A stretch of DNA of 64,000 bases from Rhexocercosporidium sp. MPI-PUGE-AT-0058 (lineage: Eukaryota; Ascomycota; Leotiomycetes; Helotiales). The notes below the pieces were generated by a model, which saw only the letters and a program-made list of their open reading frames with translations, did no database searches and had not been told where the DNA came from. Position numbers and translations under genes: made by a program. Positions 32,668-34,916 of this stretch are shown piece by piece. Numbering within the stretch: the stretch's first letter is position 1; the number at the start of each line of letters is the position of its first letter. The stretch is taken from assembly GCA_020746875.1 (NCBI GenBank), contig JAGTJL010000016.1, forward strand, positions 248,001-312,000, given 5' to 3'.

Positions 32668-33023
32668 TTAAGCCTTGAATGCATCGTCTGCCATCTTCAG
32701 TCTATGAGCACTGCCATATATGTTGTTCTGTGGCTCCGCGCCTCTCTTCTTGAAAGAGTCATCCGCAATCTTGAGTGTATGAGCTTGGCCATAGATGTCC
32801 ACTGCTTCTACTTCTCTCTTCTTAAACGAGTCATCGGCCATTTTGAGATTATGTGCCTGCCCGTAAATATTTGCTGGCTCAGCTTCGCGGGATTGGAGAG
32901 GTACTGCTTCGGTAAGCAGATGTCATTGATGATCTCGCGGTTTCGGTGCTTACCAGGAACAGGAGCAGCCACTCCAAATGCTATAAGCCCAGTGGCGACA
33001 ACGAGGAAGTTTTTGAGAAGTAT
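32668..33023 (-). CDS. Dikaritin-type RiPP precursor: leader plus three Kex2-bounded repeats (start codon uncertain)
   Basis: Exon 2 is 32668-32906, joined by a 47-nt intron (32907-32953, GTAAGC...GAAG) to an exon encoding a hydrophobic signal-peptide-like leader (NFLVVATGLIAFGVAAPVP). After SR come three units of 24 residues. Each unit holds an acidic/EA-rich spacer, then the segments NIYGQAH (32851-32871), DIYGQAH (32779-32799) and NIYGSAH (32704-32724). Each is followed by a conserved LK(M/I)ADD(S/A)FK tail, and the first two units end in KKR. Kex2 cutting after KKR and dipeptide trimming of EAEP/EVEA-type ends are the normal processing of UstA-like precursors. The core would be the Tyr-containing hexa- or heptapeptide. 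No ATG lies in frame near the leader; the codon where a Met is expected (33021-33023) is ATA. The gene is therefore either damaged, started elsewhere by an unseen exon, or started at a non-AUG codon. The divergent UstYa gene supports the assignment. Confidence 0.8.
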
Positions 33024-34056
33024 ATTCAATGGTGTCGAGTTTGTCACTTGGAGCGATGGGAAGATTAGGTTTTCGGATTCGTCCGATGATGCTGAAAGAC
33101 TGGGAGTCTCAACGTCTTAACTCCTGGACGATCAAAAAAATAAGTCTGCATAATAGTTCAGGCAATGTAACGTTGACTCGGAATACTTCTGCCGCATTCC
33201 ATTATCATGATCACTGCGAGTACGTCCATGTTAAAACTCTCCCCACTTCGTTCTCGCAGTCTAACTCCAGAAGGAAATCCAAAGACAAATTCTTGTGTGG
33301 CACAGTTTGAACTTCGAGATTAAGATCGAGGTCATATATGGACTTACGAAAACCTCGCAGGCGATCTTCTCATCTCAGATCTGTCATTGGATGGCGTGAC
33401 CGGCACTACCTCTGAAATGAGCTCCCGTATTTGAAGCCTTTATCAGGAATCTCGTACGTAAGTATGCTGCTCTGTCCGCGTTCATAGCGAGTGCATATCT
33501 CGAATAGAGAGGCTAATCAAGATGCCGGACAAGAAGAATTAGCTCCTCTCAAGTTCTCGGTGAAGAGGTGGTTATTTGATTACCTTAAACTTGACGGGAG
33601 TCTTGCTCCTCATGTTTGACACTCTCTGATTGTACTAATCAGTCGACATTGCGAAAGCGGATTGTGAGATATCGGCTCTTGCTATTAGTAGCGGGGTAAG
33701 TGGGATTCCGGATCGCTCCCTTAGTAGTGCTTGGTTCGTAAGCCGAGCCAGCCAATGCCATGATTGACTTGACTTGAGACTTGACAGATCAGCGCTCAAG
33801 CTTTATCTTCATGCAGTAGCGCTCATGTTCATCTACTACCTACCTAAACTGGAGTGTTTTTGCGTCGTTGCACGCCAGATCAAGCATTACCAATACCGTG
33901 ACAAAAAAGGATCAAACGAAATGGATGCATGGCGGCCTTTACTTTTGCAGATTTCACTTCTTCGACACAAATTCACATACGCAAAAAGTATATCTGAAAT
34001 ATCTGCCCTTAAAATCAGACACCTGAAAATTTACATTTATTCCGAAGATTATCATC
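33024..34056. promoter_or_regulatory. Divergent region between RiPP precursor and UstYa oxidase
   Basis: 1033 bases expected to hold both promoters. The minus-strand frame of the precursor leader stays open up to a stop at 33117-33119 with no ATG. ATG codons on the minus strand exist near 33149-33240 but in other frames, so a short upstream exon cannot be excluded. No named binding site is seen. Confidence 0.5.
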
Positions 34057-34916
34057 ATGGTCTCAACATGGATTCGCTCTTCGTCGTCTAGTCAAGACTC
34101 TCGAGAAGAAGAAAAAGATATCGGCTCGGTCGAGAATCTTCTGCAATCATCACTTGACGACGTCCAAGAAGCCAGAAATTCGAGACAGAGATCTCGGAAG
34201 TTAGAAAAGCGGTACTGGCTGTGGGCTGTTTTGAATATCGTCCTCTTGGTCTTGTCGCTTGCGATTCTTGCCTATCAGGTCTACGAGAAGGCTGTCAATC
34301 CACACGACAGACATCGGCTTTTAAAGCAGACTTCATATTTCTGTAAGACATGACCCACCCATTAAATATTCACAGCTGATACCTTACAGCTCCAGTCCTC
34401 GAGAAACTCGACATCCAAACTTCGATCAAGCAGGCCGACGGCAGTCTGTACGAGTCTCCCAATCCATCTCCCTACCGCAATGCCCGTAAACCAGATGCAG
34501 CAGTCAATGATGCCTGGAAAGCCATCGACAACATTCGCACATTGCCAATCACTGCAGATGACGTGCGAAAGCTCGGCAGAGACCCAGAACTCGTTGCGAA
34601 GTTCCCTCCAGAATACGGGCTTAGATCTGAAGCATATGTGGCCGAACTCGACATCTTCCACCAAATCCACTGTCTAAACCTCCTCAAACACCTGGCATGG
34701 GCCGAGTACGACCGTTCAGAAGATCACGGCAAGAAGCCGTACTCGGAACTCCACTACATTCATGTGTCTCACTGCACCGACATGCTGATGCAAAATATCA
34801 TGTGCCAGGGCAGTTTGGACGTCTTGACATTTAATTGGATGGAGACACAGGATTGGCAATTTCCTGATTTCTATGTTAACAGACAGTGCAGAGACTTCGG
34901 TGCTATTGTGAAATAG
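34057..34916 (+). CDS. UstYa-family (DUF3328) oxidase, RiPP macrocyclisation
   Basis: Exons 34057-34342 and 34390-34916 (47-nt intron) give 270 residues. A charged N-terminal tail of about 50 residues is followed by one membrane span (53-76, rich in L/V/A), then a lumenal domain. Both family motifs are present: H186-Q-I-H189-C190 and, 33 residues on, H223-C224-T-D226-M-L-M-Q230 (family consensus HxxHC and HCxDxLRQ). UstYa proteins are membrane-bound oxidases that form ether or C-C crosslinks in Kex2-released cyclic peptides such as ustiloxin, phomopsin and asperipin-2a. Asperipin-type pathways need only one. The sole nearby partner is the repeat precursor on the other strand. The gene is intact, with good codon structure and a normal ATG (ATC-ATC-ATG-G). 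Confidence 0.93.

What the first reader, a model, noticed from the sequence alone, without database searches (positions are those of the whole stretch)
32668..34916. Candidate dikaritin-type RiPP locus with an unrecognised core, IYG(Q/S)AH
Seen: a leader, three 24-residue repeats with the cores NIYGQAH, DIYGQAH and NIYGSAH, KKR sites after units 1 and 2, and a divergent UstYa protein with HxxHC (186-190) and HCxD (223-226). Known: Kex2-processed repeat precursors plus UstYa oxidases make ustiloxins, phomopsins, asperipins and epichloecyclins. Inferred: Kex2 release, amino-end trimming of EAEP/EVEA-type spacers and UstYa crosslinking of the conserved Tyr would give a cyclic peptide; the invariant His is an unusual second candidate partner. 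I recall no characterised product with this core.
Basis: partly seen in the sequence, partly recalled or inferred. Interest (0 to 1): 0.93.

Follow-up and report, generated by a model that had tools for sequence, protein, structure and literature searches.

The report
Fungal cyclic-peptide-type locus, probably decaying
A fungus carries a small gene for a repeated secreted peptide beside a gene for a peptide-modifying enzyme, a pairing shared with related fungi; it is a new repeat family of a known kind of locus, and this fungus's own copy looks damaged.

Summary
At 32668-33023 (-) lie a hydrophobic leader, a 50-nt intron and three 24-residue repeats split by KKR. At 34057-34916 (+) lies a divergent UstYa-family gene with HQIHC and HCTD. 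The window is contig C8 of Rhexocercosporidium sp. MPI-PUGE-AT-0058 (Helotiales). It is a dikaritin/ust-RiPS-type locus with a repeat not found in the papers searched.

(1) Conservation runs through YGxAHxLKxA(D/E)D, so the seven-residue core is unsupported; the product may be 11-17 residues. (2) The window copy looks damaged: no in-frame ATG serves the leader, and UstYa ends at an in-frame stop inside its conserved C-terminal region, with 44 codons 75% identical to Cadophora after it. (3) The genome holds at least five other UstYa-linked repeat precursors. The Tyr-His crosslink is conjecture.

The parts
32671..32742 (-). repeat unit 3 (GAEPQN-NIYGSAH-RLKMADDAFKA), followed by the stop codon 32668-32670
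32743..32814 (-). repeat unit 2 (EVEAV-DIYGQAH-TLKIADDSFKKR), ends in a Kex2-type KKR
32815..32886 (-). repeat unit 1 (EAEPA-NIYGQAH-NLKMADDSFKKR), ends in KKR; preceded by a single Arg
32904..32953 (-). 50-nt GT..AG intron of the precursor gene, same splice as in the NCBI protein P0058
32954..33023 (-). leader / signal-peptide exon; relatives start with Met where this stretch begins, here there is no ATG in frame back to the upstream stop
33024..34056 (.). about 1 kb intergenic stretch between the two divergent genes, possible shared promoter (inference)
   Evidence: position only
34057..34342 (+). UstYa-family gene, exon 1 (N-terminus and hydrophobic, presumably membrane-spanning, stretch)
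34343..34389 (+). 47-nt GT..AG intron of the UstYa gene
34390..34916 (+). UstYa-family gene, exon 2 up to the in-frame TAG at 34914-34916; HQIHC and HCTD motifs; PF11807
34917..35048 (+). 44 codons after the TAG, still 75% identical (33 of 44) to the C-terminal end of Cadophora gregata UstYa; the NCBI model P0001 bridges the stop with a 48-nt intron (34900-34947)

Best explanation
This is the Rhexocercosporidium copy of a two-gene dikaritin-type (ust-RiPS) locus of Helotiales. In intact relatives the precursor enters the secretory pathway by its signal peptide (seen as sequence only), is cut by Kex2 at (K)KR between repeats (inferred from the sites), loses spacer dipeptides of EA/EP type by a Ste13-like peptidase where they exist (inferred), and the conserved stretch around Tyr is oxidised by the single UstYa protein (inferred from the family). 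The conserved block YGxAHxLKxA(D/E)D implies that the product, or product plus enzyme recognition tail, is longer than IYGxAH; my guess is a core of about 11 residues ending near LKM with an acidic tail, or a 16-17-residue peptide. In the window strain both genes carry a lesion, so this copy is probably non-functional or poorly expressed. Separate confidences: dikaritin-type family 0.85; window copy impaired 0.65; product longer than seven residues 0.6.
For: The precursor family was found by phmmer (3 hits, one of them the window's own) and profile search (10 hits, three of them profile members). Five of the ten are paired with a UstYa hit by equal contig length (2,049,202; 1,468,114; 7,924; 732,377) or adjacent locus tags (ONS95_009080/009081). 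UstYa proteins of the five pairs fall together against the Fusarium and Aspergillus rows (support 98/96). Leaders of P0059, P0060, P0063 and, inside its model, P0062 start ML(F/L)K(N/S). Ten units from three species: Y, G, A, H, L, K, A, the second D and the K after F invariant. The same genome has other UstYa-linked repeat precursors in 5 of 20 stretches fetched; two of these five (L017 AEEE, L024 AEDE) have an acidic stretch before KR that resembles ADD(S/A) here. Lesions. In the AlphaFold model of P0003 the stop would fall in helix 264-274, and blocks 271-300 have pLDDT 79-86.
Against: No product, expression or splicing data. NCBI models both window genes as whole by adding an upstream exon chain and a 48-nt intron; RNA support for these is unknown to me. 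A near-cognate start is possible. Five of ten precursor hits have no UstYa partner (P0062, P0064, P0066 on contigs under 2.6 kb; P0065 on 173 kb and P0067 on 59 kb are true misses). Six of ten precursor models show no ML(F/L)K(N/S) start. P0064 and P0065 share their repeats and are hardly independent. The AlphaFold model is moderate (mean pLDDT 70, pTM 0.56). Units were picked by a pattern that fixes Y, A, LK and A, so only one search is free of that bias.
Confidence: 0.65

Rival explanations
1. One reading: a working dikaritin locus in this strain that releases the heptapeptides (N/D)IYG(Q/S)AH, cyclised through Tyr, perhaps to His.
For: Repeats, KKR sites and UstYa motifs are present; Tyr and His are invariant in the ten units.
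Against: No in-frame ATG for the leader; stop inside UstYa; conservation runs well past the His.
Confidence: 0.15
2. The precursor gives unmodified linear secreted peptides (signal or effector, 16-17 residues after Kex2, Kex1 and Ste13-like trimming), and the neighbouring UstYa acts on something else.
For: EA/EP-type spacers as in alpha-pheromone precursors; the conserved part fills most of the unit; Ste13 is not predicted to process ustiloxin or phomopsin precursors (PMC6339444, passages).
Against: A UstYa gene is the neighbour or on a contig of the same length in five of ten members. In a published survey only 22% of such precursors have a UstYa gene nearby, and repeats with Tyr are commoner among those (65.6% against 38.2%; PMC7329392, sections 7-8).
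Confidence: 0.15
3. The repeat gene is the alpha-type mating pheromone precursor.
For: Kex2 plus EA/EP layout. My pattern W-C-x3-G-Q-x-C (recalled consensus) found 4 matches in the genome, none inside a Kex2-repeat gene, so a classical pheromone gene was not located.
Against: No Trp and no Cys in the repeats; UstYa linkage, whereas 98.6% of 216 putative fungal pheromones lack it (PMC7329392 section 8). The pattern search proves little (its reversed control matched 7 times).
Confidence: 0.03

Closest known systems
Asperipin-2a locus (Aspergillus flavus)
   Same: Kex2-repeat precursor with just one UstYa-family protein in its pathway (PMC7329392, background and section 7) and Tyr-linked product (passages of PMC9233826); here too one UstYa and no tyrosinase match on contig C8.
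   Different: Core sequence unrelated (asperipin core FYYTGY is recalled); no further pathway gene was recognised by Pfam directly beside the pair, though not every ORF was scanned.
Ustiloxin and phomopsin loci
   Same: Signal peptide, Kex2 repeats, UstYa proteins.
   Different: They use 2 and 5 UstYa proteins and a tyrosinase; conserved EDYxI motif absent here; Ste13 processing not predicted there.
Victorin locus (Cochliobolus victoriae)
   Same: Multi-core precursor probably cut by Kex2 (passages of PMC9233826); the recalled core GLKLAF resembles LK(M/L)A..(F/Y) before KR here, possibly by chance.
   Different: Linked between Phe and Leu, with extensive modification; no Tyr in the recalled core. 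The victorin paper was not held.
Type G-3 repeat precursors (Umemura 2020), in Cadophora and 19 other genera
   Same: Occurs in Helotiales such as Cadophora; 57 of 64 with a UstYa gene.
   Different: Di-histidine motif, not YGxAH; the window genome's L014 gene looks like this type.

Membership tests
Dikaritin / ust-RiPS | precursor with N-terminal signal peptide | tested here: inconclusive
   Met-started hydrophobic leaders in P0059, P0060, P0063 and inside P0062; in the window the leader sequence is there but without an in-frame ATG. No signal-peptide program was available.
Dikaritin / ust-RiPS | three or more tandem repeats between Kex2 sites | tested here: met
   three units with KKR after units 1 and 2; the first is preceded by a single Arg. 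Mollisia P0063 has only two units.
Dikaritin / ust-RiPS | adjacent UstYa (DUF3328, PF11807) gene with HxxHC and HCxD | tested here: met
   but the frame ends early in the window copy
Dikaritin / ust-RiPS | crosslinkable aromatic residue (Tyr) in every repeat | tested here: met
   Tyr in 10 of 10 units of three species
Dikaritin / ust-RiPS | oxidised, usually cyclic, product | not testable with these tools
   needs LC-MS and gene deletion
Ustiloxin/phomopsin subgroup | tyrosinase gene in the cluster | tested here: not met
   no PF00264 match on contig C8 among 23 matches listed for the genome
Ustiloxin/phomopsin subgroup | EDYxI core motif | tested here: not met
   absent from the units; motif from PMC6339444 section 10
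Ascomycete alpha-pheromone precursor | Trp/Cys pheromone motif in the repeats and no UstYa gene nearby | tested here: not met
   no Trp or Cys in the units (motif recalled); UstYa adjacent

The most novel reading that the evidence does not exclude
In intact helotialean relatives a single UstYa enzyme joins the invariant Tyr to the nearly invariant His (or to Lys) inside a conserved peptide of 11-17 residues, giving a dikaritin larger than the five reported by 2022 and with a crosslink that I do not recall for UstYa enzymes, while the Rhexocercosporidium lineage is losing the pathway.
Probability: 0.12. Interest if true: 0.65.

Novelty: new member of a known kind. Interest (0 to 1): 0.42.

Why it matters
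A review of December 2022 counted only five reported dikaritins (PMC10512285, passages), although 838 precursor types had been listed (PMC7329392 abstract). A minimal two-gene locus with a long conserved repeat in several helotialean fungi is a simple system to ask how UstYa chooses its substrate and where a core ends. The warning is also useful: the copy that caught the eye is probably damaged, so chemistry should be sought in relatives.

Tried and rejected
Repeat-induced point mutation as the cause of damage: dinucleotide indices of the locus look normal; by the recalled thresholds only 2001-4000, which holds a transposase piece, is RIP-like. A second copy of the precursor in the genome: none (one match). 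Solved structures related to UstYa: none by sequence; the fold search gave no match with E under 0.001 among 79 reported. Pfam matches of the precursors (DsbA_N and others) were judged chance: one alone reaches its cut-off (P0061, 27.4 against 27 bits) and it covers 16 residues. Fusarium UstYa relatives (45-59% identity) suggest a wider enzyme family, but no Fusarium precursor was found by the profile search, so what that enzyme acts on there is open. Published mentions of the repeat: string searches with YGQAH, YGRAH, YGIAH, YGTAH, YGSAH, YGxAH (23 papers, 22 listed) and AHTLKM, LKMADD, LKMAED, AHTLKL, VYGQA, IYGTA (7 papers, 6 listed) gave no paper whose title or shown abstract concerns fungal peptides; I opened none of them. 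The repeat scan covered 20 stretches chosen because they hold UstYa matches; at least five UstYa places were not fetched, and UstYa-free genome was scanned only as the rest of the window.

Full report
What is there. The window is G000:C8:248001-312000. Contig C8 is 2,049,202 bases long, and both window proteins are recorded on a contig of that length from Rhexocercosporidium sp. MPI-PUGE-AT-0058, a helotialean ascomycete. On the minus strand, 32668-32903 codes for three 24-residue units ending KKR, KKR and KA-stop. A 50-nt intron (32904-32953) separates this exon from a hydrophobic leader (32954-33023). On the plus strand, 34057-34916 codes for a UstYa-family protein with one 47-nt intron. Many codon changes between units are synonymous (10 of 16, 11 of 15 and 5 of 11 changed codons in the three comparisons), which speaks for past selection on the peptide and against a recent or chance repeat; the third comparison is weak on its own.

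It is a family. A search with leader plus repeats gave 3 proteins. A profile of three members gave 10, three of which were in the profile: P0058 (this window), P0059 Cadophora gregata, P0060 Cadophora sp. MPI-SDFR-AT-0126, P0063 Mollisia scopiformis, P0065 Acephala macrosclerotiorum and five metagenome proteins (P0061, P0062, P0064, P0066, P0067). The four genera named are in Helotiales. Matching these against the 57 UstYa hits, five of ten are paired: P0058/P0001, P0060/P0004, P0061/P0002 and P0063/P0044 share a contig length, and P0059/P0003 have consecutive locus tags (their listed longest contigs differ, 3,472,415 and 3,474,539). Five of ten are unpaired; three of those contigs are under 2.6 kb, and P0065 (173,120) and P0067 (59,322) are real misses. 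In a tree of 27 of the 57 hits the five paired UstYa proteins fall together against the Fusarium and Aspergillus rows, support 98/96; four metagenome rows without a known precursor lie in the same group.

Where is the core? In the ten units of the first three species, invariant positions are Y, G, A, H, L, K, A, the second D and the K after F; the residues before Y and after G vary. In 25 units of the wider family the picture is alike (27 rows, two of P0065 dropped as copies of P0064; the search pattern itself fixed Y, A, LK and A and allowed H or R). The heptapeptide IYGxAH is therefore not singled out. Two of the five other UstYa-linked precursors found in this genome place an acidic stretch between core and KR: QYLAAF-AEDEAASKDKR in L024 and QGYLIKYPN-AEEESSVEKR in L017 (the core borders are my guess). 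By analogy the window's unit would be core NxYGxAHxLKM plus tail A(D/E)DE(F/Y)K(K)R. This is inference; L011, L014 and L019 do not show that tail.

The window copy looks damaged. P0059, P0060, P0063 and, inside its model, P0062 carry the start ML(F/L)K(N/S); the other models do not show it. In the window the matching stretch has no ATG in frame back to the upstream stop. The NCBI model puts 73 residues ahead of it through upstream exons, which would bury the signal peptide. UstYa meets an in-frame TAG at 34914-34916. The 44 codons after it are still 75% identical to C. gregata, so the loss would be recent. NCBI bridges the stop with a 48-nt intron that would remove residues that relatives keep as coding sequence, starts GTGCTA and is an exact multiple of three; I think it is an annotation artefact. 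In the AlphaFold model of P0003 the affected part is a helix and tail with block pLDDT 79-86 from residue 271 to 300 (72 for 261-270). Two of the other four paired UstYa models also deviate: P0004 has HQIHS and lacks the N-terminal part, and P0044 lacks the HCxD stretch. Without their DNA I cannot tell damage from faulty gene models. RIP is not the evident cause at this locus.

Surroundings. To the left lie a piece with a borderline GDSL-hydrolase match (31483-31854, 23.6 bits at a cut-off of 23.6), a fungal-rhodopsin-type membrane protein (28596-29546, with a weak further piece to 30384) and a highly reducing polyketide synthase region; to the right no Pfam match between 35588 and 37392 in the three ORFs scanned, then a WD40-like piece and a pyridine-nucleotide-disulphide oxidoreductase piece at 46198-46638. 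No tyrosinase match is on C8 (23 matches in the genome). As far as scanned, the locus is minimal: precursor plus one UstYa.

How it most likely works. In intact relatives: secretion, Kex2 cleavage, trimming of EA/EP-type spacers where present (Mollisia and P0062 lack the EAEP form), and UstYa oxidation at Tyr. Only the sequence features are shown; every processing step is inferred from the family. UstYa proteins can also desaturate residues (Sogahata 2021 as cited in passages of PMC10512285), so a product need not be cyclic.

Known or new. One survey lists 7,878 Kex2-repeat proteins in 838 types plus 2,560 single ones, 22% near a UstYa gene (PMC7329392: abstract, background, section 6 part 1, sections 7, 8 and 13 read). 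This family fits that kind. The method in section 13 needs an annotated signal peptide and at least three repeats, so the window's NCBI model and the two-unit Mollisia gene would probably have escaped it.

Verdict. A sound observation and a correct class, overstated in core definition and in activity. A new member of a known kind, of moderate interest.

Noticed in passing
L011 1501-2109 - (G000:C34:2599501-2600109): Another UstYa-linked repeat precursor with YVHGSYGYDKR repeats, six units, leader present; UstYa matches lie on both sides.
   Followed up: partly
L017 3239-3541 -, L019 1741-2223 -, L024 3158-3496 +: Three more UstYa-linked repeat precursors in the same genome: QGYLIKYPNAEEESSVEKR, (D)QALGNYYEQ.., QYLAAFAEDEAASKDKR. 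Four shadow-frame rows were dropped from the ten rows of that call.
   Followed up: partly
L014 1264-2142 -: Repeat protein with HHTEAQIAAKK units in a stretch with UstYa matches, like the di-histidine type G-3 of Umemura 2020; uses KK rather than KR, so less sure.
   Followed up: no
P0004 (Cadophora sp. MPI-SDFR-AT-0126): UstYa model reads HQIHS where the family has HQIHC.
   Followed up: no
window 5208-25759: Highly reducing polyketide synthase region with P450, short-chain dehydrogenase and BBE-type oxidase pieces, and an ankyrin-repeat ORF; whether the synthase frame is intact was not checked.
   Followed up: no
window 2001-4000: DDE_1 transposase piece in a stretch with RIP-like dinucleotide bias.
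   Followed up: partly
precursors P0058-P0066: The first repeat is preceded by a single Arg (SR, DR, GR, ER or AR) instead of a dibasic site in 9 of 10 members, the tenth being a fragment; unexplained. Seven of ten end (F/Y)K(A/V)-stop; P0064 and P0065 do not, P0067 is cut.
   Followed up: partly
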